Positions 50,612-62,042 of a stretch of DNA of 62,042 bases are shown here, piece after piece. The notes beneath the pieces were generated by a model. It ran no database searches and was not told where the DNA came from. It worked only from the letters and a program-made list of their open reading frames with translations. The DNA comes from an uncultured Bacteroidales bacterium. Lineage in GTDB: Bacteria; Bacteroidota; Bacteroidia; Bacteroidales; Paludibacteraceae. The translations under genes and the position numbers were made by a program. The DNA lies in NCBI GenBank assembly GCA_903911085.1, contig CAIWCC010000124.1, positions 1 to 62,042 of the forward strand. The letters run 5' to 3'. The stretch's first letter is position 1. Every line of letters starts with the position of its first letter.

Positions 50612-51927
50612 TGTCCGACCTTTACGATGGATGTGATGCCTGTCGTGATTTGGCTGATGTTGAATCAGGTTTTGTATTCGATTTAAATGTCATTGAAACG
50701 GCACTTAAACGCATTTACGAAACCGATTTCAACCCCATGACCGATATAGAAGAAAGTCTATTTCGCGAAACATTGAAGACTTTTAATCATGCTACCGACA
50801 AAGGTATAGCAATGGGGCATGCCCCACTGCAAGAACAAGTGGAGTTTGTAAATGCGTTAAAAACCAATAATGCTGTATTTTCTGCATTCCGAACACATAG
50901 AATGCAAAATGACATAGCAGCACAGCTATTGGACGAAAAAGGAAAACTAAAGCCGTTCAATCAGTTTGTAAAAGATACTTCAAGCATCACCGACCATCAT
51001 GTTAACCAGTGGTTGCGTACTGAGTATGATACTGCTGTTATTCGCGCCCACGGTGCTGCCGACTGGAAACAATTTGAAGATGAAAAGGATGTACTTCCTA
51101 ATCTCGAATGGATGCCAACCACATCAGTAACACCAGGAGCCGACCATCAGATTTTTTGGGGTGTTATTCACCCTATCGACAGTCCTTTTTGGAGTGCACA
51201 TCGCCCGGGCGATCGTTGGAACTGCAAGTGTCGCCTACAGGCTACCGACAAATTAGCGGCTGTAGAGACGGGGCATGCCCCGTCTGTAGGAAAGTCAAAT
51301 AACCCACAACCCGGACTGGACAATAACCCGGCAAAGGATGGTAAATTGTTTAGCGATACACATCCGTTTCGTACCAAAACATATCCAGGGGCAAATGAAG
51401 CGGTAGCAAAATTTCTTGATAAAGAGGGCATTTTGAAAATTGTTGATTCTCTGAAAGAATATGCCGAATATACTAAGGTTAAGAAGTTTAGCAATGGAGG
51501 GGAGTTATTCACACACAAGTTAGCGGATAAGACGGCCAAGGACTACAAACTTGTAAAATCAGTAGGGTTGGAGTTTGCGAGAACTGGAGCAAAAGTAAAA
51601 GCAACACCAAGGGTACACTTTAAATCAGATGAATACAAAGATATTTACGGAAGCCTTATAGGCACTAAATATGAGCGTAAATGTCCAGATTTATTGATTA
51701 ATGGTAAGTTCTATGAAGTGGAAAGTTTTGAGAAACCATGGAAAAAGCAAAAAGTAAGAAAAATGCTAAGTCATGGCGCACTACAATCATCTCGATTAAT
51801 AATAGATAACACCAAAGGATGTTCAGATAGATTTATTCGTCGAAGCATTTACGACAGGTTGCACGTTGGAACTAAAATTGAGGAAGTCTGGCTGTATGAA
51901 AAAGGAAAGTTACGAAAGCTATTTTAA
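50611..51927 (+). CDS. gpF-like head morphogenesis protein fused to a nuclease-toxin-like domain
   Basis: 438 residues. The N-terminal 240 are Mu gpF/SPP1 gp7-like: TDHHVNQWLRTEYDTAVIRAH, WGVIHPIDSPFWSAHRPGDRWNCKCRL. From about 285 a separate domain follows: GLEFARTGAKVKATPRVHF, KCPDLLINGKFYEVESF, then basic helices. This resembles the PD-(D/E)xK tRNase domains of CdiA-type toxins; the usual ExK is read here as EVE, so catalysis is uncertain. Two in-frame palindromes (50810, 51266) insert MGHAPL-like peptides. Confidence 0.8.
   Translation: MSDLYDGCDACRDLADVESGFVFDLNVIETALKRIYETDFNPMTDIEESLFRETLKTFNHATDKGIAMGHAPLQEQVEFVNALKTNNAVFSAFRTHRMQNDIAAQLLDEKGKLKPFNQFVKDTSSITDHHVNQWLRTEYDTAVIRAHGAADWKQFEDEKDVLPNLEWMPTTSVTPGADHQIFWGVIHPIDSPFWSAHRPGDRWNCKCRLQATDKLAAVETGHAPSVGKSNNPQPGLDNNPAKDGKLFSDTHPFRTKTYPGANEAVAKFLDKEGILKIVDSLKEYAEYTKVKKFSNGGELFTHKLADKTAKDYKLVKSVGLEFARTGAKVKATPRVHFKSDEYKDIYGSLIGTKYERKCPDLLINGKFYEVESFEKPWKKQKVRKMLSHGALQSSRLIIDNTKGCSDRFIRRSIYDRLHVGTKIEEVWLYEKGKLRKLF
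50810..50829. repeat. GGGGCATGCCCC palindrome, copy 3 (in gpF)
   Basis: One mismatch in the outer arm; encodes AMGHAPLQ in frame in the gpF domain. Confidence 0.85.
51266..51285. repeat. GGGGCATGCCCC palindrome, copy 4 (in gpF)
   Basis: AGACGGGGCATGCCCCGTCT; same core, different outer arms; encodes TGHAPS in frame between the gpF and toxin-like domains. Confidence 0.85.
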
Positions 51928-51928
51928 A

Positions 51929-51999
51929 CAACAAAGGGAAGTAAAACTTCCCTTTGCAAGACCACGCACCGTAGTGCAGGCTAGTAACCTTTCGGTTAT
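51929..51999 (-). ncRNA. Candidate small RNA with GAAA and TACG tetraloop hairpins
   Basis: On the minus strand, from a TATCTTTG box: hairpin TAACC-GAAA-GGTTA (51998-51985), hairpin GCAC-TACG-GTGC (51977-51966) and an 11-bp perfect terminator stem CAAAGGGAAGT/ACTTCCCTTTG (51956-51932). The T-rich tail lies only on the minus-strand side. It shares the 10-mer TTCGGTTATG (plus strand) with the structured region at 31862-31871. Confidence 0.55.
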
Positions 52000-52005
52000 G
52001 TGATG

Positions 52006-52013
52006 CAAAGATA
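52006..52013 (-). promoter_or_regulatory. Minus-strand -7 box for the 51929 RNA
   Basis: TATCTTTG, the most common Bacteroidetes -7 form. No clear -33 TTG at 19-21 bp. Confidence 0.5.
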
Positions 52014-52059
52014 CAACCATTTTTCAAATAATATTCATTTAAAGCAAAAAAAATATATT

Positions 52060-52335
52060 ATGAACAAAAAAATTGAAATCGAAATCGAAAAAATACCTCA
52101 AAGTGGTGAAAAACGAATAAAACAGATAGAGGGTATAAAAAGAACCGTTAAAGTAGATGGAAGTATAGTTTTTTACGACTATGCCGCACCTTGCATTTAC
52201 AATAAAAATTCCGACCCCATTAAGTTTTTAGAAAACTGGTTAACGCAGCAGTCCCAAAGCTCCAACAATAGTAGAACCGATAGAAGAAATCAGGTTGGCT
52301 TTTTCAAGAAACTTTGGCTCAAGCTCTTTCGATAG
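52060..52335 (+). CDS. Small protein of the cargo segment, unknown
   Basis: 91 residues from the ATG at 52060 (MNKKIEIEIEKIPQSGEKR). Beta-rich start, basic C-terminus. No family recognised. Its last 96 bp overlap the convergent gene at 52240, so one of the two ends may be non-functional. Confidence 0.45.
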   Translation: MNKKIEIEIEKIPQSGEKRIKQIEGIKRTVKVDGSIVFYDYAAPCIYNKNSDPIKFLENWLTQQSQSSNNSRTDRRNQVGFFKKLWLKLFR

Positions 52336-52644
52336 TAATTGTAACTCAATGTCGAGTTTCTTAATATTGGATTTCAATACTTCGTCCTGTACATAAAAGC
52401 CACCGTGTGCCAAAAAGTCCGAAGCTTCAACCAATAATGAAAGGTTATAATCGCTCCTGTTCTCTGCAAAGTCCGAAATAAGACCAATGCGAAAAAATTG
52501 GTTTAAAATACCTGTAATCTCGTTTGGGTTGAGTTGTCCGAAATTAGTTGAAAACTCCGATTTGTCGATAGAGTAATAATTTTCAAATTCCAAATTGTCG
52601 CATAAATGCTGAAGTATTTCGTCTTTAATTTTTGAAGTAATCAT
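52240..52644 (-). CDS. Cargo (moron) protein, unknown
   Basis: 134 residues. The N-terminal part resembles a winged-helix (IKDEILQHLCDNLEF, LNPNEITGILNQFFRIGLI), the C-terminus is an amphipathic to hydrophobic helix (ANLISSIGSTIVGALGLL). It is opposite in direction to the surrounding head operon and has its own host-type promoter. Could be immunity to the adjacent toxin-like domain or a lysogeny function; not shown by sequence. Confidence 0.65.
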   Translation of the reverse strand: MITSKIKDEILQHLCDNLEFENYYSIDKSEFSTNFGQLNPNEITGILNQFFRIGLISDFAENRSDYNLSLLVEASDFLAHGGFYVQDEVLKSNIKKLDIELQLLSKELEPKFLEKANLISSIGSTIVGALGLLR

Positions 52645-52674
52645 GTATGATGTTTTTTAGTATTAAATAAACTG

Positions 52675-52705
52675 CAAATATACCAAAACTATGGACATTA
52701 ATCAA
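52675..52705 (-). promoter_or_regulatory. Canonical promoter of the cargo gene
   Basis: On the minus strand TTG (52705-52703), 20-bp spacer, TATATTTG (52682-52675). The element overlaps the first codons of the plus-strand gpG-like gene. Confidence 0.72.
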
Positions 52706-53236
52706 TTCTTAATCCAAATTGGCAGAACTCAAAAGCAAATTGAACGGCTGATGAACCGCACACTACCCATAAAAGCGGGTGCTGAAGCTAAGACTCATTT
52801 TCAGCAAAACTTTATCAAAGGTGGATTTGTAAATAATGGACTAAAGCCCTGGAAAAAATCATTGCGAGAACGTGAAGGTAAAAAGTCAGCACTAAGTAAA
52901 TACAAAACCCTGCTAAGTAGTCGCACTCACCTGTTCAGGTCAATTGCATACATTCCTGGTAATGGCATGGTAAAAATTATCAATCCGGTAGAGTACGCAG
53001 CTGCGCACAATGAAGGTGCAACCTTTGTGGTAAAAGCCAGAGAACAGGTATTACATTTCAATTCAAAAGGCAGGTTCAACCGCGATAACAAAAGAGCAAA
53101 ATACGCTCAAAAAGTAAATATCGGCAGTCACCAGGTCACCATCCCCAAACGTCAATTCATTGGCGAAAGCCATGAGCTAAACAATAAAATCACTAACATA
53201 ATCGACACCGAACTTCGCAAATTAATAAACCCATAA
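52691..53236 (+). CDS. Virion morphogenesis protein (Mu gpG-like)
   Basis: 181 residues. AEAKTHFQQNFIKGGFVNNGLKPWKKSLRER, LLSSRTHLFRSI, VEYAAAHNEGA and IPKRQFIGES are the conserved blocks of the phage virion morphogenesis/tail completion family. Needed for joining head and tail. Confidence 0.87.
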   Translation: MDINQFLIQIGRTQKQIERLMNRTLPIKAGAEAKTHFQQNFIKGGFVNNGLKPWKKSLREREGKKSALSKYKTLLSSRTHLFRSIAYIPGNGMVKIINPVEYAAAHNEGATFVVKAREQVLHFNSKGRFNRDNKRAKYAQKVNIGSHQVTIPKRQFIGESHELNNKITNIIDTELRKLINP

Positions 53237-53241
53237 CCTGA

Positions 53242-53261
53242 CAATGGGGCATGCCCCATTG
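53242..53261. repeat. GGGGCATGCCCC palindrome, copy 5
   Basis: Perfect copy between gpG-like and the next gene; again its ATG opens an in-frame MGHAPL extension upstream of the likely true start. Confidence 0.9.
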
Positions 53262-53279
53262 CATAAAACCCATAAAATC

Positions 53280-53789
53280 ATGCCAAAGCCCCCAATCATT
53301 ATCAACTCATTTTTCGCTCAACTATACCTGGACCTTCAGGAACGTATAAAAGCAGCCGTTCCAGAAATTCAATGGATAGAACAAGACTTCGGACAAGACA
53401 CCTACGACAAGTGGAGGCCTAACGTCGCATTCCCTGCCGTTCTTATCGACTTTCCATCGGCAAACTACGAAAGCATTGGTGGAGGCGGTCAGTGGGCTGA
53501 CATTGAATTGAAATTACGATTAATGGTAGCACCATTCGAGCAAAGTTTCGAAGATGCACCCATCGAAGTACGCAAAGGAGCATTGGAGTTCTTCGAGCTC
53601 GAGCACAAACTCACTCATGCAATACATGGATGGGCGCCAATTGCCCCCTCTCCTCAAGGAGAGGGGGCAGGGGGTGAGGTCTATGTTCAGCCCTTCATTC
53701 GCACCCGCATCATTTCCAACAACCGAAACGACATCGGCCTACGCATCCGTGAGTTACATTTCACTACATCTTATCAGGAGTATGAATAA
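53280..53789 (+). CDS. Head-tail joining protein (gp37-like position)
   Basis: 169 residues from the ATG at 53280. INSFFAQLYLDLQERIKAAVPEIQWIEQDFGQ and FPAVLIDFP, then LHFTTSYQEYE at the end, resemble tail-terminator/joining proteins of Mu-like phages. A CCCCTCTCC repeat is inserted in frame (53644-53680, APSPQGEGAGGE). Last gene of the plus-strand head operon. Confidence 0.7.
   Translation: MPKPPIIINSFFAQLYLDLQERIKAAVPEIQWIEQDFGQDTYDKWRPNVAFPAVLIDFPSANYESIGGGGQWADIELKLRLMVAPFEQSFEDAPIEVRKGALEFFELEHKLTHAIHGWAPIAPSPQGEGAGGEVYVQPFIRTRIISNNRNDIGLRIRELHFTTSYQEYE
53644..53680. repeat. CCCCTCTCC/GGAGAGGGG repeat in the joining gene
   Basis: Same element as at 50454, in the same reading frame (SPQGEG). 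Confidence 0.85.
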
Positions 53790-53819
53790 AAAAAGCGGGT
53801 TAAAACCCGCTTTTTTTTT
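53788..53819. terminator. Strong bidirectional terminator
   Basis: AAAAAGCGGGTT / AACCCGCTTTTT arms with long A and T runs, between the head operon (plus) and the convergent cargo gene (minus). Confidence 0.93.
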
Positions 53820-54321
53820 AATAACATGATATTCTCCAGTAGCCATCTCGATTATTTGTCAATAAACATTCTCTAAACAATCCATTTATTATCACTTTTT
53901 TTCTCCACTCTGTTTGGTTATAAAATCCACCGTTTTGCTTGAGTGCATCTTCTTTATTTGGTATAGAATCAAAATATTTATTCCAAATTGGCAAAATGTC
54001 TAAAAATTTACCTGATAAATCCCTGAAAAAATAAAAAGTTGTTCCTTTAATTTCTAGATTTAAATCTTCGCCTTTAATTATCCTTACAAAATGAAATGTC
54101 ATATCAATATCATCTAAATGATATGAAATTAATGCGATTCCATTATTCTTATTTATATATTTTGAATCAAATACAAATTTTCTACTTGCTGGTTCAAGTA
54201 GAGAATCAGTTAGATGCTTAATTTGATTAGTATCATTAATACATAAAAAGTCTCTTTTCTCATATTCTTGTCCTATAAGCAAAGATGGAACTAATATTAA
54301 CAACATAATTAGCTTTTTCAT
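53818..54321 (-). CDS. Exported cargo protein, unknown
   Basis: 167 residues from the ATG at 54321 (MKKLIMLLILVPSLLIGQEYEKRDF), which begins a signal peptide cut after IG. The mature part is mixed alpha/beta with one Cys pair possibility (FLCIND, RECLL, ISCY). AT-rich and host-like in codon choice, with its own promoter and terminator: a likely lysogenic conversion gene. No family recognised. Confidence 0.7.
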   Translation of the reverse strand: MKKLIMLLILVPSLLIGQEYEKRDFLCINDTNQIKHLTDSLLEPASRKFVFDSKYINKNNGIALISYHLDDIDMTFHFVRIIKGEDLNLEIKGTTFYFFRDLSGKFLDILPIWNKYFDSIPNKEDALKQNGGFYNQTEWRKKVIINGLFRECLLTNNRDGYWRISCY

Positions 54322-54346
54322 ATTATCATATTTTTTAAAAGTGTTC

Positions 54347-54377
54347 ACAAAAGTAATGAGTTTCCCCGAATAAACAA
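54347..54377 (-). promoter_or_regulatory. Canonical promoter of the exported cargo gene
   Basis: Minus strand TTG (54377-54375), 20-bp spacer, TACTTTTG (54354-54347), 26 bp before the start codon. Confidence 0.75.
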
Positions 54378-54395
54378 GGAAACTCACTAAAATAT

Positions 54396-54584
54396 TTAAT
54401 TTTCCGAAAAACTAAACACATAAGGCTTAGCACTCGTACTCTTCAGCCGTTCTATTTCATATATAACTTGGGTTTTTTCCGCCAACACGCGTTCATATCT
54501 TTTCAGTATTATGCTTATTAGCGGGTCATGTGCTTCCAAACCCTCAAGTTTCACCGTAAGTACTCCGTTAGTTATTTGTATCAT
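54396..54584 (-). CDS. Small phage protein, unknown
   Basis: 62 residues; starts MIQITNGVLTVKLEG; helical middle (LISIILKRYERVLAEKTQVIYEIERLK). No family recognised. Third gene behind the antirepressor-like protein. Confidence 0.6.
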   Translation of the reverse strand: MIQITNGVLTVKLEGLEAHDPLISIILKRYERVLAEKTQVIYEIERLKSTSAKPYVFSFSEN

Positions 54585-54595
54585 AGGTCTGATTT

Positions 54596-54820
54596 TTAAT
54601 ACAAACGATATACATAATCCGTATCTTCAATTGCCGCCGTACATGCTTTGCAGCGTATCAGTTTCCAAGTTACTTGTTCGCCTAGCACCACCAATATACC
54701 ATTTCTTCGGTTCTGATTCTGTTTACACCCACAAGTAAGCCGTGTGCGGAAAGTTTCACCTTGCTGTAAGTCAGCAAAAGCCGTCATTTCGGCTTTGGTA
54801 TTTACATACTTTGTTTTCAT
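54596..54820 (-). CDS. Small zinc-ribbon-like protein
   Basis: 74 residues with Cys pairs TCGCKQ and RCKACT about 25 residues apart, fitting one zinc-binding site. Start overlaps the stop of the previous gene by 4 bp. Possibly a small regulator. Confidence 0.65.
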   Translation of the reverse strand: MKTKYVNTKAEMTAFADLQQGETFRTRLTCGCKQNQNRRNGILVVLGEQVTWKLIRCKACTAAIEDTDYVYRLY

Positions 54821-55344
54821 TTGGCATGCCCTCCCATAAGTTCGTTTACAATATCCGTTCTTAAAGAAGAATCTTCTATCCGGTGCGTAAGCTGTAGCAG
54901 CCGTATAAGCCTGTCGGATGTTATCCGGTTGTGGTTGCGCTTAGCAGGCAATGCCCGTGTAGTTTTTACTACTCCAAACAAGTCATGCTGTTCATTCACC
55001 TGGATAATCAACTCCTCAGCCCAATCCCTGAAAAGTTTTGCACGTTCACTCTGAATGAAAAATCCTAAACGTACTATTCCTCTTTTTGTCCACATTGTTG
55101 ATTTTGAAGCTCCAGCGGACGCACCGTGACGAATTGTCACGCCGCTCAAATAGTGTTTGCCTTCAATTAATTCAGTCGAGTGTCGGAGTTTAGTTTGTCT
55201 AATTGCATAATCAGTTGTCCCATATCCGTGGGCAGCCTCTTTTGTGCTAATTATAAACTCGTGGTTTAAATCTGGTAGGATTGTAACGGTTAAACCTTCC
55301 GTTACTGTTAGGCTTAAAGCCTGTTCATTCTTTTGGTTCTGCAT
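54817..55344 (-). CDS. Antirepressor-like phage regulatory protein
   Basis: 175 residues from the ATG at 55344. STKEAAHGYGTTDYAIRQTKLRHSTELIEGKHYLSGV and TMWTKRGIVRLGFFIQSERAKLFRDWAEELI resemble ORF6N/BRO-type antirepressor domains, though not closely. Preceded by a long leader with its own terminator, so expression is probably controlled by attenuation or by a small RNA. Confidence 0.65.
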   Translation of the reverse strand: MQNQKNEQALSLTVTEGLTVTILPDLNHEFIISTKEAAHGYGTTDYAIRQTKLRHSTELIEGKHYLSGVTIRHGASAGASKSTMWTKRGIVRLGFFIQSERAKLFRDWAEELIIQVNEQHDLFGVVKTTRALPAKRNHNRITSDRLIRLLQLTHRIEDSSLRTDIVNELMGGHAK

Positions 55345-55370
55345 TTTAAAGAATTTGATTATTAGACATA

Positions 55371-55494
55371 AAAAAGCCCGTGCGCTGCAGAACCACAACA
55401 TACACGGGGCATGAGAAATTACCGTTCCAAACGGCTCACACGGGCTTATTATTCTAATTTCTTAGTTCACCCCCTTAGATATGTAATAGTTCTG
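55371..55494 (-). ncRNA. Leader RNA with terminator (attenuator or small RNA)
   Basis: From the promoter at 55531-55501 the minus-strand RNA would begin with CCCCC, which can pair with GGGGG about 25 bases on. Then AAGCCCGTG (55447-55439) pairs with CACGGGCTT (55382-55374), followed by TTTTTT: an intrinsic terminator 27 bp before the next start codon. Confidence 0.6.
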
Positions 55495-55500
55495 CGGGGG

Positions 55501-55531
55501 CAAAAGTAAATAAAGTTTTTTGATTCTGCAA
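55501..55531 (-). promoter_or_regulatory. Canonical promoter of the antirepressor-like operon
   Basis: Minus strand TTG (55531-55529), 20-bp spacer, TACTTTTG (55508-55501). Confidence 0.75.
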
Positions 55532-55608
55532 TAAAATACTAAAAAAAATATAAAGCCGTCGCGTTTCACAACGAAACCGGCTTGTCTGTTACATTCAAGT
55601 TAAATATC

Positions 55609-55616
55609 TATCTTTG
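55609..55616 (+). promoter_or_regulatory. -7 box for the 55649 gene
   Basis: TATCTTTG on the plus strand, divergent from the 55501 promoter; the two enclose a switch-like region of about 100 bp. Confidence 0.6.
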
Positions 55617-55648
55617 TGTCGTCAAACAATTAAAAAAAATAAATATTT

Positions 55649-55867
55649 ATGGAAAGAACTCCCGAACAAATCACGCTGCATAGTCAGCTTGTCTCCGAAA
55701 TCATTGCCAAACGCAATGTGTCATTAACCCAAGTGCAGCGCACAAAATTAGAAATTGGTTGCTGGAAAGCTATCGACGAAAATCCTGAACTAAACAAGCA
55801 TGATTTACTGATAGCTTTAGGCATTTACCTCAATTTCATTCTTGAGTTTCCTAACTTGGTTCTGTAA
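55649..55867 (+). CDS. Small phage protein, unknown
   Basis: 72 residues, helical, MERTPEQITLHSQLVSEIIAK. The only plus-strand gene in the early region, transcribed divergently from the antirepressor-like operon, so a regulatory function is possible. No HTH recognised. Confidence 0.6.
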   Translation: MERTPEQITLHSQLVSEIIAKRNVSLTQVQRTKLEIGCWKAIDENPELNKHDLLIALGIYLNFILEFPNLVL

Positions 55868-55874
55868 AGCTCGA

Positions 55875-56045
55875 TTAGCATTCTGTAGAACTACAGCTGG
55901 ACCTATTTGGTTCTTTAACTTGTAAAGAAGCACTTGCAATAGCTTTTGTAAGTACTTCTACTACTTTTTGCTCAATTTCGTTTGAGTTTACGTCATTACC
56001 GACTATTACTAAGGTGCCAATAAGATTTGTAATGTTGATTGTCAT
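55875..56045 (-). CDS. Very small phage protein
   Basis: 56 residues from ATG at 56045 (MTINITNLIGTLVIVGNDVN), ending STEC. Amphipathic helix in the middle. Convergent with the previous gene, 7 bp apart. Weak but coherent reading frame. Confidence 0.45.
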   Translation of the reverse strand: MTINITNLIGTLVIVGNDVNSNEIEQKVVEVLTKAIASASLQVKEPNRSSCSSTEC

Positions 56046-56098
56046 TTTTTTACTGTTTAAATGGTTATTAATAGTTGTTTAAATCTGTTTTTCTTATT

Positions 56099-56121
56099 CC
56101 CCTTTAGGGGTTAGGGGTTCT
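56099..56121. repeat. CCCCTTTAGGGGTTAGGGG interspersed repeat
   Basis: Short inverted C/G-run element at the end of the 56122 gene; a second copy abuts the DGR template repeat at 57383. Confidence 0.8.
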
Positions 56122-56352
56122 TTAAAATAATTTCAATTGGTTCGGGTCTTCCGGTGTTGGGTTCTCTGCCTCCAGTTCCTTCATGTATCGCCAAAACGTC
56201 CGCTCACTTATTCCGGTAACCTTGCTTATTATATTCCGGTACACTGCCATTTTGCTTTTATCCTGCCTGCCAGGTTCAAAATTTGCACGTAATATTTCCT
56301 TCACCCGGGCTGCGCTCAGTTTGGTGCTTTTGTGTTTCGAGTGTCTAGCCAT
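56122..56352 (-). CDS. Small HTH-like DNA-binding protein
   Basis: 76 residues from the ATG at 56352. MARHSKHKSTKLSAARVKEILRANFEPGRQD then NIISKVTGISERTFWRYMKELE, a helix-turn-helix pattern. Upstream lies the AAATACTTGGTCTTAATT element. Confidence 0.65.
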   Translation of the reverse strand: MARHSKHKSTKLSAARVKEILRANFEPGRQDKSKMAVYRNIISKVTGISERTFWRYMKELEAENPTPEDPNQLKLF

Positions 56353-56359
56353 AAATGTA

Positions 56360-56391
56360 AAATACTTGGTCTTAATTATCAATTATCAATT
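56360..56391. repeat. AAATACTTGGTC + heptamer array, copy 1
   Basis: AAATACTTGGTCTTAATT followed by TATCAATT units, between the HTH gene and the HAD gene; the HAD stop codon lies in the array. Confidence 0.75.
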
Positions 56392-56782
56392 AAAGATGTC
56401 CCTCTCTTATCACCTTATCCTCTCTCTTTATCGGTATCCTATCAATCACCATCCAATAAATCTCATCCCAGTGCGGAAGCGGAGCCAGTAGCCCTCTATC
56501 ATCAACGTATATATCGGCAAACACTTTTCTAGTATCCACACCACCATACAGCGCCACGTTCCACTTACAGCTCTCATTAAAATAGTGGAACTTTATGCCC
56601 TGTTTTACCAGCCATTCTATTGCCCTGGCTTTATCTATACCTGTTCGGCAGCTCCATATTATTATCGTATAACCATCAGCATACAGTTGGTTAATGGCTT
56701 CCTTAGCACCATCTTTTATTTCACCTATTTCCGGATATTTATCCCTTACTATCGTTCCGTCAAAATCAATCGCTATAATCAT
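56390..56782 (-). CDS. HAD-family phosphatase (BT0820-like)
   Basis: 130 residues. IDFDGTIV (Asp nucleophile 6, Asp 8), IIWSCRTG and DIYVDDRGL complete the HAD motifs. Similar small hydrolases occur in Bacteroidetes phages and genomes; the substrate is unknown, perhaps a nucleotide. Confidence 0.85.
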   Translation of the reverse strand: MIIAIDFDGTIVRDKYPEIGEIKDGAKEAINQLYADGYTIIIWSCRTGIDKARAIEWLVKQGIKFHYFNESCKWNVALYGGVDTRKVFADIYVDDRGLLAPLPHWDEIYWMVIDRIPIKREDKVIREGHL

Positions 56783-56795
56783 AAATATCTATTTT

Positions 56796-57362
56796 TTAAT
56801 CACTAAATTTATCTCTAAAATGCTGCAAACCGTCATCTTTGTCATGTAATTCATTCTCCGACAATGGGGCATGTAATTCATTCTCCGACAATGGGGCATG
56901 TAATTCATTCTCCGACAATGGGGCATGCCCCATTGCATTAGGCGGGGTGGTCAATTCAAAATACCTATCATGTATAAATTCATTCAATTTCTCTACTGTA
57001 AAAATTCCATGATCTACAGACTTATAAGCATACTTCCCAAAATCCTTCATTGATTTCTCACACACCCCACCACGCTCACTAAAAGTATGGAACATCACCC
57101 GGTAATGCATAATATCAATTCCCCTGGTGCGCGTATCCATAAAAATAATACCTATAGAAGTTATACCGATTGGTGGTGGTTCCTCAGTCTTATCCCACTT
57201 TATAAGCTTCCACTCATTCGGCACTTGTAAGCCGTCAAAAAAAGCCCCGCACATCACATTCAACTCTTTCTTTGAACGGTCAACCCTTCGACCCCAAGTT
57301 CCTTTACTCTTTGCCTGTACTTGCTCCATATCTTTTTTATTTGCATCCCCACCGCCGTTCAA
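56796..57362 (-). CDS. Phage protein of unknown function with tandem HAPLSENEL repeats
   Basis: 188 residues from the first ATG; the ATG at 57329 (MEQVQAKSKGTWGRR) may be the true start. The core (VMCGAFFDGLQVPNEWKLI, MHYRVMFHTFSE, HGIFTVEKLNEFIHDRYF) is not recognised. Near the C-terminus three copies of the nonapeptide HAPLSENEL come from 27-bp tandem repeats. It lies where a DGR reverse transcriptase would be expected but shows no RT motif. Confidence 0.68.
   Translation of the reverse strand: MNGGGDANKKDMEQVQAKSKGTWGRRVDRSKKELNVMCGAFFDGLQVPNEWKLIKWDKTEEPPPIGITSIGIIFMDTRTRGIDIMHYRVMFHTFSERGGVCEKSMKDFGKYAYKSVDHGIFTVEKLNEFIHDRYFELTTPPNAMGHAPLSENELHAPLSENELHAPLSENELHDKDDGLQHFRDKFSD
56846..56926. 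repeat. Three 27-bp tandem repeats with half palindromes
   Basis: Units 56846-56872, 56873-56899 and 56900-56926 are identical; each ends with CAATGGGGCAT, half of the palindrome completed at 56916-56935. Confidence 0.92.
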
Positions 57363-57382
57363 AGCGGTAGGGCTTAGTAATT

Positions 57383-57402
57383 CCCCTTTAGGGGCTAGGG
57401 GT
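57383..57402. repeat. CCCCTTTAGGGG repeat abutting the template repeat
   Basis: CCCCTTTAGGGGCTAGGGGT; the DGR template alignment starts at the next base. Confidence 0.8.
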
Positions 57403-57480
57403 CATAGGTGCGAGGTGTTACCTGCATTCGCATTCGAGTTATCGTAATTCGTATCGTTGAAAACGAAGCCCCTGGAAGAC
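57403..57480 (-). repeat. DGR template repeat (TR)
   Basis: 78 bp, non-coding, aligned without gaps to the C-terminal coding regions at 57634-57711 and 58052-58129. In the sense (minus) direction it would read GGFVFNDTNYDNSNANAG then NTSHL-stop, rich in the AAC/AAT codons typical of templates. Versus VR1: 14 differences, all at sense adenines (21 adenines present). Versus VR2: 16 differences, 15 at adenines. Confidence 0.88.
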
Positions 57481-57521
57481 AACCTCACAAAGACAAACAG
57501 CCCTAATTTTCCTACTCTTTT

Positions 57522-57555
57522 CCCCTCTCTTCAAGGAGAGGGGTCAAGGGTGAGG
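57522..57555. repeat. CCCCTCTCT/GGAGAGGGG repeat between TR and VR1
   Basis: Third copy of the element at 50454 and 53644, here non-coding, three bases from the stop of the VR1 gene. Confidence 0.8.
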
Positions 57556-57557
57556 TG

Positions 57558-57938
57558 TTACTTCAGAATCATTCGACTGTACACGTCAGTGAACGTCCTA
57601 CCGGCATACCCTGCCATCTCCTCAGTTGGAAAGCAAAGGCGCGAGGCGTTACCCGCATCCGCAAACGAGTCACCGCAATACGTATCGCCGAAAACGAAGC
57701 CCCCGGAAGACATTTCAAACCAAGGATACCATTTGCGTTGGCGACCGTCATTCCAGTCGGCTTTCCAGTCACCAACTAAAGCCTTGGTAATTGCCACCGC
57801 CTCATATACGGCTTTAAAATACTCACGAAGTTCCTCAGGCACTTCATTAAATTCAGGTGTTACAGGCGTACCTGTTACGTTCAAAGCATCCTCTACTGTT
57901 TTGATGCTTTCCATTGGTGTTACTTCTTGTTTTTCCAT
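57558..57938 (-). CDS. DGR target protein 1
   Basis: 126 residues from the ATG at 57938. An acidic N-terminal part (MEKQEVTPMESIKTVEDAL, FNEVPEELREYFKAVYEAV) and a C-terminal variable domain: DWKADWNDGRQRKWYPWF, then SSGGFVF-GDTYCGDSFADAGNASR-LCF and AGYAGRTFTDVY. The variable stretch matches the template repeat. No signal peptide and no tail-fibre features. The constant part is shared with the next gene. Confidence 0.85.
   Translation of the reverse strand: MEKQEVTPMESIKTVEDALNVTGTPVTPEFNEVPEELREYFKAVYEAVAITKALVGDWKADWNDGRQRKWYPWFEMSSGGFVFGDTYCGDSFADAGNASRLCFPTEEMAGYAGRTFTDVYSRMILK
57634..57711 (-). repeat. DGR variable repeat 1 (VR1)
   Basis: 78 bp inside target 1, encoding FGDTYCGDSFADAGNASR. 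All 14 differences from TR are at sense-strand adenine positions. Confidence 0.88.
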
Positions 57939-57972
57939 GTGTATGAAAATTGTTTTTAATGCCTTACGGCGA

Positions 57973-58452
57973 TTATTGATAGAGAATATAATCAGAGTAT
58001 AATTTTGTAAACTGTTCGCCAGCATATTTAGCCAGTTCTCTGGTTGCAAAGCAAAGGCGCGAGGCGCTACCCGCAACCGCAACCGAGTTACCGTAACCCG
58101 TACTGCTGAAAACGAAGCCCCCGGAAGACATTTTAAACCAAGGATAATACTTATATTGGCTACTGTCGTTCCAGTCAGCTTTCCAACCCTCGTTTAAAGC
58201 TTCAGTAATAGTTTTTATTTTACGCAGATTTATTTCGTCGGGCGTAAATCCAAGTTCGTTAAGCGTAACTTCAAGTTGTGCACATATTCCGAGTTCATTA
58301 CAAGCATCTTCGTATGTTTTGATACGATCGGTAATTTTCATTGAGAAAAACTCTTTTCCAAAAGTGGTCTCAAGCATTTGCTTAAATTCAGGCGAAGCCG
58401 TTGCGTATAGTTTTCGGGCTTCCGACTCTTCAATAAATAGTTGTTTTTTCAT
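57973..58452 (-). CDS. DGR target protein 2
   Basis: 159 residues from the ATG at 58452. A helical N-terminus (EESEARKLYATASPEFKQMLETTFGKEFF), ITDRIKTYEDACNELG, then the same C-terminal domain as target 1: GWKADWNDSSQYKYYPWF, SSGGFVF-SSTGYGNSVAVAGSASR-LCF, KYAGEQFTKLYSDY. The two targets lie head to tail upstream of TR in the sense direction. Confidence 0.85.
   Translation of the reverse strand: MKKQLFIEESEARKLYATASPEFKQMLETTFGKEFFSMKITDRIKTYEDACNELGICAQLEVTLNELGFTPDEINLRKIKTITEALNEGWKADWNDSSQYKYYPWFKMSSGGFVFSSTGYGNSVAVAGSASRLCFATRELAKYAGEQFTKLYSDYILYQ
58052..58129 (-). repeat. DGR variable repeat 2 (VR2)
   Basis: 78 bp inside target 2, encoding FSSTGYGNSVAVAGSASR. 15 of 16 differences from TR are at sense adenines; the exception is one C-to-T (plus strand) at 58104. 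Confidence 0.87.
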
Positions 58453-58501
58453 ATTCTTTTTATTGTGTGGAAGTACTAAAAATGTACTTCCACAGATTAA
58501 A

Positions 58502-58945
58502 TTAAGCAGCCGCTTCATCAGCTTCGTATTTATACACATCCATAATATTAGTCTCCGTAATCGAAGCAACCGAATAGTCGGCCATAGTTCCTTTCATTCC
58601 TTCGTGTAATCCGTCCCATGCCTCTTTTATATCATTCGCTTGTACCATCATGGTAGTTGCTGTTCTCTTTTCAATGCCTTTTTCTTCGTCAAGCGAAACA
58701 AACATCACTTTAGCTTTGTACCATTTGTCACCGTTCTCGTTGTAGAACATTTCATTGATTTTCTTTTTCATCAATTTAGCTCCTGTAAATTGACCCGAAA
58801 TGAATGGTTTCATCTCCTCGGTAAGCCTTGATTCGGCTTCCGCATGTGTTAGCGCATCAATTAGATAGTGTTCGCTTACGCTTACAATCTTTCCCTCTTC
58901 CGCTGTTTTTTCGTATTTTACTACGCCTTCAAACCAATTATGCAT
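58502..58945 (-). CDS. DUF4494-like protein
   Basis: 147 residues. MHNWFEGVVKYEKTAEEGK, VSEHYLIDALTHAEAESRL and KWYKAKVMFVSLDEEKG are typical of DUF4494 proteins of Bacteroidetes phages and mobile elements. Function unknown. Part of the early operon. Confidence 0.75.
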   Translation of the reverse strand: MHNWFEGVVKYEKTAEEGKIVSVSEHYLIDALTHAEAESRLTEEMKPFISGQFTGAKLMKKKINEMFYNENGDKWYKAKVMFVSLDEEKGIEKRTATTMMVQANDIKEAWDGLHEGMKGTMADYSVASITETNIMDVYKYEADEAAA

Positions 58946-58988
58946 ACTTTTTTTGTTTTGTGTTCCGTGTGTGCGAAACTGATTATTA

Positions 58989-59606
58989 TTAAATGTTAGA
59001 AAAATTCAATTCTACCGCCTGATATTTACCATCCGCATCCTTCGCCCAAATCCTATAATAAGTCTTGGAGTCAGGCCTACGAAGTGCCTGTTGAATTAAT
59101 TTACAAGCTTCAGTAAAAAGTGGGTGGTTAACTTTACTTTCGTAGCGCGTGAGTGGTGTAATCTTTTTCGGATCCAATTGTCCCTTCGTAGTTTCAAAAG
59201 CAGTAAGAATCATATCCTTTGCAAAATTAAACTTGCTTTCAATGGCTTCATTCAGGAACTCATCAAGTTTTGCCTTAGCAGCTGATATTGTCAGTTCGTC
59301 AAATTTCACTGGCTCCGACACAGAACGCTCTACCTTAATAGATCGGTCAAAATTATACCAGGTCAAATTTCCTTTCGAGTTTTCTTTTACCACTCCATTT
59401 TCGGCCAGTGATGCTTTTTCAACTTCCTCACATATCGCTTTAATATCTTTTTTAAAGCCAATTAAATGCTGATTAATTGATTTAGATCCTTTCAATAAGG
59501 AAGTGGATTTTTGTTCCATTAATTTCTCGCATTTAGTAATGCGCTTTACTGGTATTGCCTGTCCATTTTCGTCGATCCAATTAGGATCTGTTGTTTTTTG
59601 ATTCAT
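58989..59606 (-). CDS. DUF3164-family protein
   Basis: 205 residues. WIDENGQAIPVKRIT, the long helical middle with YNFDRSIKVERSVSEP, and RRPDSKTYYRIWAKDADGKYQAVELNFS are the DUF3164 pattern of Mu-like phages, where it lies in the early region. Function unknown. Supports the Mu-like call. Confidence 0.85.
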   Translation of the reverse strand: MNQKTTDPNWIDENGQAIPVKRITKCEKLMEQKSTSLLKGSKSINQHLIGFKKDIKAICEEVEKASLAENGVVKENSKGNLTWYNFDRSIKVERSVSEPVKFDELTISAAKAKLDEFLNEAIESKFNFAKDMILTAFETTKGQLDPKKITPLTRYESKVNHPLFTEACKLIQQALRRPDSKTYYRIWAKDADGKYQAVELNFSNI

Positions 59607-59610
59607 TTCT

Positions 59611-59656
59611 TTATTTAATTATTAATTATTGATTGACAATGGGGCATGCCCCATTG
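59611..59656. repeat. Heptamer array plus GGGGCATGCCCC palindrome
   Basis: AT-rich heptamers (59611-59636) run into a perfect palindrome (59637-59656). The C-terminus of the 59615 gene reads through both. Confidence 0.88.
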
Positions 59657-59932
59657 TATTACTATTACCACTATTACCACTATAACCACTACCGCACCCA
59701 CTACCAAAGTAAACCGCCCAAAACCATTAAACTCTTCTACCAGTTCTACCTCTATTCTATCGGTCACATCTTCAAATATTACATTTCCGTGTGTGCAATC
59801 GATATTCGAACAGTCACTAAAATTATGAAAGGCGCAACTTGAACAAGTATCTTTCTCACTATGCGGCTTAGCCAAATAAATCAAATTATCCTTCTTAATG
59901 TACCCTCCGGCACTTGGTCTTATCATTTTCAT
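59615..59932 (-). CDS. Cys-rich small membrane protein ending in repeat DNA
   Basis: 105 residues. Cys cluster CSSCAFHNFSDCSNIDC (possible metal site) near 30-47 and a C-terminal membrane segment GAVVVIVVIVVIVI made by a simple CCACTATTA-type microsatellite. The last residues QWGMPHCQSIINN come from the palindrome and heptamers. The natural end may differ. Confidence 0.6.
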   Translation of the reverse strand: MKMIRPSAGGYIKKDNLIYLAKPHSEKDTCSSCAFHNFSDCSNIDCTHGNVIFEDVTDRIEVELVEEFNGFGRFTLVVGAVVVIVVIVVIVIQWGMPHCQSIINN

Positions 59933-60147
59933 ACCTGTACATATTTAAGTTTATCCAACTCTTTCTCTGCTTTCTCAAGCTGATGCAGCTTGCGTTGCCA
60001 CTCTTCAGTATGATACTCATTGTCTAGCAGCCAGTCACTAAGTTCGTCTATTTTCTTTTCGCATTCAAGCATACTCTCAAGGTGTTTAGCCTCTTCTTTT
60101 TTTCGTTGGAGCTCAAGCAAGTCTCCCAAAGTTTTTTGTTTTTCCAT
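59929..60147 (-). CDS. Small coiled-coil protein
   Basis: 72 residues, almost entirely coiled coil (LLELQRKKEEAKHLESML, LHQLEKAEKELDKLK). Overlaps the next gene by 4 bp (ATGA). Function unknown. Confidence 0.65.
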   Translation of the reverse strand: MEKQKTLGDLLELQRKKEEAKHLESMLECEKKIDELSDWLLDNEYHTEEWQRKLHQLEKAEKELDKLKYVQV

Positions 60148-60193
60148 GTGTCTGTAAAATTTCTAATGATTTAATGTTCCAAAGTCCCCAATA

Positions 60194-60231
60194 AAATACT
60201 TGGTCTTAATTCTTAATTCTTAATTCTTAAT
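60194..60231. repeat. AAATACTTGGTC + heptamer array, copy 2
   Basis: AAATACTTGGTCTTAATT followed by three TCTTAAT units, upstream of the coiled-coil gene and ending at the stop of the GemA-like gene. Confidence 0.78.
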
Positions 60232-60685
60232 TCATTGCAGCCAAAGCCCTCATCTCATCCTCCACACCAGCCTTTATTGCTTTCACATTTTTTGCCACCT
60301 TTTGTTTGCGGGCAAACTCACCTATTATGCTATTCAAAGCAGTTTCACTTATCCGGTTAAACTCATTTACTTCAGCAGCGCGGCACGCTATTGTTTTTAT
60401 ATACTCAATACCACACTCACGCCCTGTACTTACAATATAACCGCTTATTGTTGCTATCACACGTTTACGGAGCTTATCTAGTTTGGCTAAATCAGGGTTA
60501 ACCATTAGTTCCACCTTAGCGCACAGTTCTATCAATTCATGTAAATTCATATCCTTGCAGCTTTCCACACCGTACGCGCTAAGCATTGCCAGCTCAGCAT
60601 TACGGTCAATACCCCCATTATTAAGAAAAGTCTTAAATCTCTTAATATAATGGTTCATGTCTTTTTCCATCATTGTTGTTTTCAT
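60227..60685 (-). CDS. GemA-like (Mu gp16-type) early protein
   Basis: 152 residues. The N-terminal KRFKTFLNNGGIDRNAELAMLSAYGVESCKDMNLHELIELC resembles the GemA/DUF1018 domain, in which GemA alters host gene expression during Mu lytic growth. The rest (CRAAEVNEFNRISE) is typical of Bacteroidetes Mu-like phages. Call moderate. Confidence 0.62.
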   Translation of the reverse strand: MKTTMMEKDMNHYIKRFKTFLNNGGIDRNAELAMLSAYGVESCKDMNLHELIELCAKVELMVNPDLAKLDKLRKRVIATISGYIVSTGRECGIEYIKTIACRAAEVNEFNRISETALNSIIGEFARKQKVAKNVKAIKAGVEDEMRALAAMN

Positions 60686-60719
60686 TGCCGTTGTGTATTT
60701 GGTTATTATATAAGTGTAT

Positions 60720-61115
60720 TTAAAAAAGTGATAACTGTTGATATTGCTTTACTCCGCTCAAAAAGCAATCAGAGTAATAATTAAAGTCGGAAGCGCCGCA
60801 TTTTGAGCATTTAAAACTTCCTTGATAATAATGGGGATCTGCATATTCTTTATGATTTGGTCGCTCGCAATCGTGGGATCCGCAAACAGGGCAAGTAAAT
60901 ATTTTTTGAGCTTGTTTACCTGTATAATCTTTATATTCGGCAAAAAACGGTTTCCAAGATTTGATTTCTCCATTACAATTTATAGTTTCAATATATGTAT
61001 AGGGTTTTCCTGACGCATCTAGGGATTTTGAAACATCAAACTCCATATTCCTTATTATAAAATAGAATGGATATTGAATGTCGTTACTTAACCCTTTATA
61101 AACCTTAGCTCTCAT
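60720..61115 (-). CDS. Zinc-ribbon protein, unknown
   Basis: 131 residues from the ATG at 61115. Two Cys pairs, CPVCGSHDC and CSKCGASDF, 24 residues apart with His between, form a zinc ribbon. N-terminal part beta-rich. Possibly binds DNA or RNA. Confidence 0.7.
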   Translation of the reverse strand: MRAKVYKGLSNDIQYPFYFIIRNMEFDVSKSLDASGKPYTYIETINCNGEIKSWKPFFAEYKDYTGKQAQKIFTCPVCGSHDCERPNHKEYADPHYYQGSFKCSKCGASDFNYYSDCFLSGVKQYQQLSLF

Positions 61116-61128
61116 ATCATTACTCTTA

Positions 61129-61161
61129 ATTATCAATTGTCAATTATCAATTATTAATTAT
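61129..61161. repeat. AT-rich heptamer array
   Basis: TTAATTATCAATTGTCAATT-type units between the ATPase stop and the zinc-ribbon start; without the AAATACTTGGTC part. Confidence 0.78.
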
Positions 61162-61778
61162 TATTTCACTTCCCAATACTCCATAGCCCCCTTTTCCCAA
61201 ACGGTATAAGGAGCACCACCGCCGTATCTACTTTGTGGAAAAGCCCTATACCCAATCACCGCTATTTTTACAAAAGCATCGTACTTAATCGATTTGCCAA
61301 CCTGCCCTTTAGGCTCACGTCCGTCAGCATGACTAATGAAAATAAAAAGCTTGTTTCTAAACTCGTCACGCAGCGCTTTATACTCTGCATAATTCATTCC
61401 CGAGTACTGAAGGCTATCAATAAAAATTACGTCCGGACTCTTACGCTTCCGCAATCTAACTGCCAGCTCTTCAATTGGCTCCTTATCCAACAGAATGAAG
61501 CCCTTAGCGCCTGTCATTCCCACATCCCGTATAGCCACCGCCATACTTTGACTTAAACCCTCTTCGAGTGAGTTATAAGCCACTCGTCCAAAATTGCTGA
61601 GATACTTCGCCAACTGCAATGCAAATCTTGTCTTTCCATTTGCCGAATTACCCCATATTATCCAACTACCGGTCAGTTCCGGTTTACCAATGCTATCGTA
61701 AAAATCACCTTCAAAATCCAAAACATGAGGCTTATAATTCAATACATCCGTTACAGTTAAAGCCCTTTTAATCGCCAT
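61161..61778 (-). CDS. RecA/AAA-like ATPase of the early region
   Basis: 205 residues. Walker A WGNSANGKTRFALQLAKYL and Walker B SPDVIFIDSLQY; later IFISHADGREPKGQVGKSIKY resembles the RecA/DnaB-like core. No extra DNA-binding domain. In Mu-like phages an ATPase (MuB) accompanies the transposase; this shorter RecA-like protein could fill a similar or a recombination role. First gene seen of the early operon. Confidence 0.72.
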   Translation of the reverse strand: MAIKRALTVTDVLNYKPHVLDFEGDFYDSIGKPELTGSWIIWGNSANGKTRFALQLAKYLSNFGRVAYNSLEEGLSQSMAVAIRDVGMTGAKGFILLDKEPIEELAVRLRKRKSPDVIFIDSLQYSGMNYAEYKALRDEFRNKLFIFISHADGREPKGQVGKSIKYDAFVKIAVIGYRAFPQSRYGGGAPYTVWEKGAMEYWEVK

Positions 61779-61829
61779 TCATAAACCATTAAATCATTGT
61801 TTAAAATTGTAATTGACTACTCCCAAATT

Positions 61830-61889
61830 AAATACTTCGTCTTCTTAATTATTAATTATTAATTATCAATTATTAATTATCAATTAGTC
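61830..61889. repeat. AAATACTTCGTC + heptamer array, copy 3
   Basis: AAATACTTCGTCTTCTTAATT then about five heptamer units, upstream of the ATPase gene. The 150-bp stretch 61779-61930 holds only this array and unremarkable AT-rich DNA. Confidence 0.78.
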
Positions 61890-61930
61890 CTCCTTGTATA
61901 TCTTAGTCTCCCCAATATGAGCCGTCCTAC

Positions 61931-62042
61931 TGTATATATTAATTGAAAAAGGTACCACCCATTAATTGAAAAGTATACCAGTGATTTCATCTTAACGAAT
62001 AAAAATTTCGTTATAAAAGAATGATAAACATGTATACAAAAC
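61931..62042 (+). mobile_element. Left end of an IS21-like element
   Basis: Begins TGTATATATT. Two direct repeats ATTAATTGAAAA-GGTACCAC (61938-61958) and ATTAATTGAAAAGTATACCA (61961-61980) are the multiple end repeats typical of IS21-family ends. An ORF starts at 62021. The element continues beyond the window. Confidence 0.6.
62021..62042 (+). CDS. Start of an IS21 istA-like transposase, cut by window
   Basis: Only MINMYTK is visible. The position behind the end repeats fits istA. Identity rests on context. Confidence 0.4.

What the first reader, a model, noticed from the sequence alone, without database searches (positions are those of the whole stretch)
57403..58129. Diversity-generating retroelement: one template and two variable repeats with adenine-only differences
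Three 78-bp segments align without gaps. Relative to the non-coding TR (57403-57480), VR1 (57634-57711) differs at 14 sites and VR2 (58052-58129) at 16. In the coding sense TR has 21 adenines; all 14 VR1 changes and 15 of 16 VR2 changes fall on them, and none of the other 57 positions changes in VR1. TR would encode NDTNYDNSNANAGNTS, the AAY-rich pattern of DGR templates. Adenine-specific retrohoming is the established explanation (DGR family); paralogue drift would not respect the base.
Basis: partly seen in the sequence, partly recalled or inferred. Interest (0 to 1): 0.92.

Follow-up and report, generated by a model that had tools for sequence, protein, structure and literature searches.

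The report
RT-less phage diversity-generating cassette
This prophage carries the template and two hypervariable gene segments of a targeted-mutation system, but the enzyme that drives it has been deleted; most of its known relatives keep the enzyme, and they use it to diversify small proteins encoded among early or DNA-replication genes rather than tail genes.

Summary
A 79-bp template repeat (TR, 57403-57481, minus strand) and two variable repeats (VR1, VR2) differ almost only at TR adenines: 14/14 and 15/16 changes (P about 1e-10 each). Relatives show the order VR2, VR1, TR, reverse transcriptase (RT), 105-aa ORF. Over 26 distinct VRs, 264 of 416 cells change at 16 variable TR adenines against 6 of 1510 at other bases. 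Two RT+ phages differ at 8 sites in 12,038 bp, 6 of them TR adenines in VR1.

RT, 105-aa ORF and the structured post-TR RNA (Rfam RT-17 in relatives) are missing; no RT was found in the 6.25-Mb draft genome. Contig L001 shares the junction, and two relatives show separate RT losses: 4 of 63 testable TR records. The cassette is most likely frozen; rewriting in trans by an RT+ relative with the same TR is possible, unproven.

The targets are unusual: small proteins without a transmembrane-like stretch, in early or replication modules, VR domain with no recognised C-type-lectin fold. A DGR derivative; new variant of a known kind.

The parts
57403..57481 (-). Template repeat (TR), 79 bp, 21 coding-sense adenines; its last 15 bases (57403-57417) correspond to IMH*
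   Evidence: identical over 79 bp to the TR of L001, L002, L003, L004, L008, L016, L043, L045, L052, L054, L055, L057
57634..57712 (-). Variable repeat 1 (VR1); 3' end 57634-57648 is IMH-like
57558..57938 (-). Target gene 1 (126 aa) containing VR1
   Evidence: phrog_11581, unknown function, E 2.5e-15
58052..58130 (-). Variable repeat 2 (VR2); 3' end 58052-58066 is IMH-like
57973..58452 (-). Target gene 2 (159 aa) containing VR2
   Evidence: phrog_11581, E 1.7e-33
57487..57502 (-). 5' arm of the helix that encloses TR in RT+ relatives; its 3' partner is missing here
   Evidence: conserved in the window and L001
57383..57402 (-). Deletion junction: first sequence after TR, a palindromic repeat in place of spacer RNA, RT and 105-aa ORF; identical in L001
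56796..57329 (-). 177-aa ORF that in RT+ relatives lies beyond the RT and the 105-aa ORF
58502..58945 (-). DUF4494 gene upstream of the targets
   Evidence: PF14902 E 5.2e-50; upstream of the targets in several Mu-like relatives
58989..59606 (-). DUF3164 gene
   Evidence: PF11363 E 1.6e-28
61161..61778 (-). ATPase gene of the early module (phrog_6891); lies next to the MuB-like gene in Mu-like relatives
   Evidence: E 1.3e-69

Best explanation
The locus is what remains of a phage DGR in a prophage of Mu-like relationship. In RT+ relatives, by analogy with BPP-1: a transcript across TR and the following spacer folds into an enclosed RNA; the DGR-type RT copies TR into cDNA with errors opposite adenines; the cDNA replaces the VR of (usually) two paralogous target genes and leaves A-only changes. 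In the lineage of the window and L001 a deletion that begins exactly at the 3' end of TR removed the spacer RNA, the RT and the 105-aa ORF. The TR can therefore no longer be primed or copied in cis, and both VRs are frozen in their last state. Shown: the repeats, A-specificity, concerted TR/VR change and recent VR change in RT+ relatives, absence of RT and spacer here. Inferred: the biochemical steps, that the missing parts were lost rather than never there, and that their loss means inactivity.
For: Repeats and A-specificity. Relatives: 264/416 changed at 16 TR adenines against 6/1510 elsewhere; L002/L003 8 mismatches in 12,038 bp, 6 at TR adenines of VR1, and L136/L142 12 mismatches in 5,336 bp, 9 in 32 nt of VR1. 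RT in 59 of 63 TR records with at least 1,100 nt beyond TR, lying beyond TR in all 59. No RVT_1 in G000, no match to the family's RT at E up to 0.1, while the positive control L008 matched at 3e-230. Identical junction in L001. Enclosing helix with changes on both sides in 7 of 20 pairs; RT-17 in seven RT+ or spacer-keeping relatives, none in the window's 50000-62042 at E up to 1.
Against: The genome is a draft in 269 contigs and the window is a whole contig (62,042 bases) that ends inside the prophage, so an RT elsewhere in the phage or genome cannot be fully excluded. The VR1 of window and L001 differ at 11 sites, all TR adenines, although they share the deletion; that could mean rewriting after the loss. 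TR is identical over 79 bp in window and L001 (0/79) while the sequence beyond differs by about 11% (27 of 240), which a useless TR need not show. Neither VR gene is disrupted.
Confidence: 0.8

Rival explanations
1. The cassette is non-autonomous but still diversified: an RT+ relative in the same cell, carrying the same 79-bp TR, rewrites its VRs in trans with its own TR RNA and RT.
For: TR is identical in window, L001 and at least 10 other loci. Window and L001 share the deletion but differ at 11 TR adenines and no other base of VR1. A reconstituted BPP-1 DGR acts on targets on another plasmid (PMC12875486, passages).
Against: No RT+ relative in this genome. The window/L001 alignment is mosaic: 0 of 122 differences at the gene start, 11 of 104 just before VR1, 5 of 76 after it, 0 of 101 in the 22 nt before TR and TR, then 1 of 80 and 27 of 240; import of VR1 by recombination explains the difference as well.
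Confidence: 0.12
2. The RT is present in the organism but lies in an unassembled part of the genome or on another element.
For: Draft of 269 contigs, 97.9% complete; the window contig ends inside the prophage.
Against: In 59 of 59 RT+ records the RT lies beyond TR on the same strand, in 58 ending within 1.5 kb of it; that stretch is continuous here, holds another gene, and has the same junction in L001. The spacer RNA next to TR is missing too.
Confidence: 0.06
3. No retroelement: ordinary duplication and drift or gene conversion between paralogues.
For: The two target genes are paralogues, 77% identical over 191 nt, so duplication did occur.
Against: Base specificity, flank control without A preference, RT beside the same repeats in relatives.
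Confidence: 0.01

Closest known systems
Diversity-generating retroelement of Bordetella phage BPP-1 (avd-TR-brt, target mtd)
   Same: TR/VR pair with adenine-specific differences, IMH*/IMH-like differences at the 3' end, structured spacer after TR, and in relatives an RT whose best PDB match is 8ub7 (E 5.6e-56; that 8ub7 is the BPP-1 enzyme is recalled) with a GxxxSQ motif (IGNYLSQ).
   Different: Window lacks RT, spacer and second protein gene. In relatives the second ORF follows the RT and has no Pfam match; targets are not tail-fibre genes.
DGRs of crAss-like phages
   Same: Nearest annotated phage RTs, up to 57.8% identity. [quoted passage not shown]
   Different: In cr53_1 the RT follows an annotated tail protein; here it follows small genes of the early module.
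Quimbyvirus DGR with a non-structural target (PMC8008677, passages)
   Same: A phage DGR target outside the structural module.
   Different: There both targets are described with C-type lectin domains and one lies near tail fibre genes; here both targets sit together beside TR and no C-type lectin was recognised.
Hankyphage DGR (PMC6199706 and PMC12135933, search listings only)
   Same: DGR in a transposable Bacteroides phage.
   Different: Its target is a tail fibre protein (recalled, no call).
Rfam RT-17 RNA (RF03020)
   Same: The spacer after TR matches it above its cut-off in L002, L008, L016, L057, L059, L060, L061.
   Different: Not detected in the window.

Membership tests
Diversity-generating retroelement (this locus) | Template repeat and variable repeat(s) in close register | tested here: met
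Diversity-generating retroelement (this locus) | TR/VR differences confined to TR adenines | tested here: met
   14/14 and 15/16; 26 VRs
Diversity-generating retroelement (this locus) | DGR-type reverse transcriptase in the cassette or genome | tested here: not met
   no RVT_1, no family RT at E up to 0.1 in the 97.9% complete draft; hence filed as an RT-less derivative
Diversity-generating retroelement (this locus) | Structured spacer RNA 3' of TR | tested here: not met
   no RT-17 at E up to 1; 3' arm of the enclosing helix absent
Diversity-generating retroelement (this locus) | IMH in VR against IMH* in TR | tested here: met
   constant TR/VR differences at 57416, 57409, 57405 in 26 of 26 distinct VRs; their role is inferred
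Diversity-generating retroelement (this locus) | Stem-loop 3' of IMH | tested here: inconclusive
   only short stems, not conserved across loci
Diversity-generating retroelement (this locus) | Variable domain with C-type lectin fold | tested here: inconclusive
   no Pfam match; AF2 models pLDDT 82 and 81 with the VR stretch poorly modelled in the second; no convincing PDB match
Diversity-generating retroelement (this locus) | Demonstrated mutagenic retrohoming | not testable with these tools
   sister-phage differences in RT+ relatives are indirect evidence; none for this copy
Diversity-generating retroelement (RT+ relatives) | RT beside TR with DGR features | tested here: met
   59 of 63 testable TR records; GxxxSQ and YADD in L008; group II, DRT and retron models of NCBIfam match only below their cut-offs
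Diversity-generating retroelement (RT+ relatives) | Accessory protein (Avd or replacement) | tested here: inconclusive
   105-aa ORF follows the RT in most records; phrog_19665, unknown function; no Pfam or NCBIfam match; role not shown

The most novel reading that the evidence does not exclude
A DGR lineage that, instead of receptor-binding tail proteins, diversifies pairs of small intracellular phage proteins in the early/replication module, with a variable domain that is not a C-type lectin, probably to keep pace with an intracellular host factor such as a defence protein. RT-less members like this one persist as frozen cassettes that RT+ relatives sharing the same TR can service in trans.
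Probability: 0.3. Interest if true: 0.78.

Novelty: new variant of a known kind. Interest (0 to 1): 0.5.

Why it matters
It shows how a hypermutation cassette can lose its enzyme and its RNA handle while template and targets stay intact, at least three times in one family. It also points to phage DGR targets that sit with early or replication genes instead of tail genes. If these proteins act inside the cell, DGRs would serve phages for more than receptor change, and this could be tested in cultured carriers such as Dysgonomonas and Paludibacter strains.

Full report
Observation. The three segments are present as described and one base longer: TR 57403-57481, VR1 57634-57712, VR2 58052-58130, all read on the minus strand. 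VR1 differs from TR at 14 sites, all coding-sense TR adenines; VR2 at 16, of which 15 are adenines. The hypergeometric probability is 1.1e-10 for VR1 and 1.8e-10 for VR2. The two target genes are paralogues; outside the VR their differences show no adenine preference (A 6/29, T 5/27, C 8/22, G 14/34). In the genome (G000, 6,251,348 bases, 269 contigs, 97.9% complete) only these three copies were found.

Relatives. A search of viral contigs with the VR1 protein gave 18 loci. All 18 carry VR1 and TR, and 17 also VR2 in the same order; L018 starts at the VR1 gene. The TR core gave 19 viral stretches and 7 genome contigs, among them Dysgonomonas and Paludibacter. A profile search gave 63 loci, partly the same records. 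I counted on 25 loci with this type of TR (window, L001-L018, L043, L045, L052, L054, L055, L057), which hold 26 distinct TR/VR pairs. At 16 TR adenines 264 of 416 cells differ from TR (G 127, T 92, C 45); at non-adenine positions 6 of 1510 differ, two of them at the first base. The other five adenines always differ, each to one base. Where TR has a non-A polymorphism, the VRs of the same genome usually share it (L005 and L007, L009-L012, L013-L015), as copying from TR to VR predicts; VR2 of L006 is an exception at one site.

Recent change in RT+ relatives. L002 and L003 differ at 8 sites in 12,038 bp; 6 lie in VR1, all at TR adenines. L136 and L142 differ at 12 sites in 5,336 bp, 9 of them within 32 nt of VR1. 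Of the 27 pairs tried, others show no VR difference (for example L009/L010 and L013/L015, identical), and some differ mainly elsewhere (L110/L111, whose 54 mismatches all lie outside the VRs).

The RT. In relatives an RT of about 330 aa follows TR after about 110 bp, and a 105-aa ORF follows the RT. RVT_1 matched 17 of 18 records, the miss being L001, and 10 of 11 further records, the miss being the genome of L057. The match for L056 is a distant RT (28-32% identity to that of L008) on another contig. The L008 RT carries IGNYLSQ and YADD. Its best PDB relative is 8ub7, E 5.6e-56, named 'Reverse transcriptase'; that this is the BPP-1 enzyme is recalled. NCBIfam's group II, DRT and retron models match only below their cut-offs. 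The nearest annotated phage RTs are of crAss-like phages, up to 57.8% identity.

The window lacks it. RVT_1 gives nothing in G000, the family's RT gives nothing at E up to 0.1, and neither RT nor 105-aa ORF is found in the last 14 kb of the window. The window is a whole contig of 62,042 bases that ends inside the prophage. TR is followed by a palindromic repeat and a 177-aa ORF that in relatives lies beyond the RT. L001 has the identical junction and no RT in its 34-kb record. L057 keeps the spacer but lacks RT and 105-aa ORF, and its genome has no RVT_1 match. L056 keeps spacer-like sequence and the C-terminal half of the 105-aa ORF, a deletion scar. These are at least three separate losses. 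In 77 records, de-duplicated by record name only (several are near-identical, and L060 and L126 look like one element), TR was detected in 67; 63 of these have at least 1,100 nt beyond TR and 59 of the 63 have the RT. The four without are the window, L001, L056 and L057. Ten records had no detectable TR (L091, L092, L118-L120, L129, L130, L132, L140, L141); L130, L132 and L141 end within about 120 nt of the target gene. The set was collected by similarity to the window, so 4 of 63 is no unbiased frequency.

The RNA. In RT+ relatives and L057 the sequence before TR pairs with the spacer after TR, enclosing TR, and a hairpin follows. On 14 sequences 96.4% of 280 cells form standard pairs, 7 of 20 pairs show changes on both sides, and the covariation score exceeds all 500 shuffles and the slid versions; the number of further pair types does not exceed the shuffles (256 of 500 as high). 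The structure was drawn from folds of some of these sequences, which favours it in the slid control. Rfam's RT-17 matches the spacer above its cut-off in L002, L008, L016, L057, L059, L060 and L061; L001, L055, L056, L058, L125 and L129 gave no RT-17 match above cut-off. The window shows none at E up to 1 between 50000 and 62042. In BPP-1 the spacer recruits the RT complex and provides the priming adenine (PMC12875486, passages). So this TR most probably cannot be reverse transcribed even by an RT supplied from elsewhere; an RT+ relative could still rewrite these VRs with its own, identical TR. That is possible and unproven.

Window against L001. They share the deletion, but their VR1 differs at 11 sites, all TR adenines. 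This could mean rewriting after RT loss. However, the alignment is mosaic: 0 of 122 differences at the start of the VR1 gene, 11 of 104 just before VR1, 5 of 76 after it, 0 of 101 in TR and the 22 nt before it, 1 of 80 after the junction and then 27 of 240, and the VR2 proteins are only 66% identical. Import of VR1 by recombination explains the data as well.

Phage and targets. The window holds prophage genes for terminase, portal, major head, tape measure and baseplate hub. L001 has MuA- and MuB-like genes upstream of the cassette, as have many relatives; the window contig ends before that point. In Mu-like relatives the order is mostly MuA, MuB, ATPase, DUF3164, DUF4494, VR2, VR1, TR, RT, 105-aa ORF, 177-aa ORF, HAD, with single genes undetected in several loci. 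In other phages neighbours of the cassette include RecE-like exonuclease, Erf-like annealing protein, SSB, primase, SbcC, RecT, exonuclease, ssDNA-binding protein and DNA methylases (20 queries, 19 distinct proteins, chosen by size; four gave no match and one matched only a family of unknown function). A homologue in Bacteroides phage Versailles lies among recombination and replication genes, although its record calls it a tail protein; one in Dulem virus 41 lies near polymerase/primase genes. The window's targets have no transmembrane-like stretch (highest 19-residue hydropathy 0.64 and 0.75). AF2 gives a helical N-terminal part, a VR stretch of low confidence and two C-terminal helices, without a convincing PDB match. 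Roux 2021 (PMC8144416, sections 8 and 9 read) reports that annotated VR domains are systematically C-type lectins and that viral targets of clades 1, 4 and 6 are mostly tail proteins; Benler 2021 (PMC8008677, passages) calls previously known phage targets structural and describes a non-structural one in Quimbyvirus. Whether the present family is among Roux's unnamed clusters I could not check.

Most likely working. RT+ relatives: mutagenic retrohoming from a structured TR RNA into two or three target genes (of 67 records with TR, 57 have two target genes, 7 three, 3 one). Window: the same system without RT, 105-aa ORF and RNA handle, hence frozen. What the targets do is not shown; their place suggests an early intracellular role, and a counter-defence protein is my guess.

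Noticed in passing
TR 57473, 57423, 57416, 57409, 57405: Five TR adenines are never variable: every distinct VR has the same other base there (G, G, G, G, T). 57423 is a synonymous third codon position that lies between variable adenines, so neither protein selection nor a conversion boundary explains it simply.
   Followed up: partly
57383-57401, 56099-56117, about 57511-57557: Short palindromic repeats (CCCCTARCCCCTAAAGGGG in two direct copies, and CCCCTCTCC..GGAGAGGGG) between genes of the prophage; one sits at the deletion junction and one is absent from L001 at the same place, so they may be mobile and may have mediated the deletion.
   Followed up: partly
56843-56927: Three exact copies of a 27-bp unit inside the 3' part of the 177-aa ORF, absent from L001.
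   Followed up: no
L118, L119, L120, L091, L092: Records with an RT fragment or RT but without a detectable TR and with one target gene only; perhaps products of recombination between repeats.
   Followed up: no
L121 6025-7056, L122 5592-6623: RT reading frame split in two overlapping frames while TR and three target genes remain.
   Followed up: no
L061 4570-5265: Two TR copies and a duplicated target gene in one cassette.
   Followed up: no
window VR1 and VR2: Among the 19 changes at variable adenines in the window none is A to C, 14 are A to G; over the family G is commonest (127 of 264), like the C misincorporation reported for BPP-1 RT in E. coli (PMC12875486, passages).
   Followed up: partly
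L008 10341-10658: 105-aa ORF after the RT (phrog_19665, no Pfam), conserved with the RT in most records; candidate accessory protein in place of Avd.
   Followed up: partly
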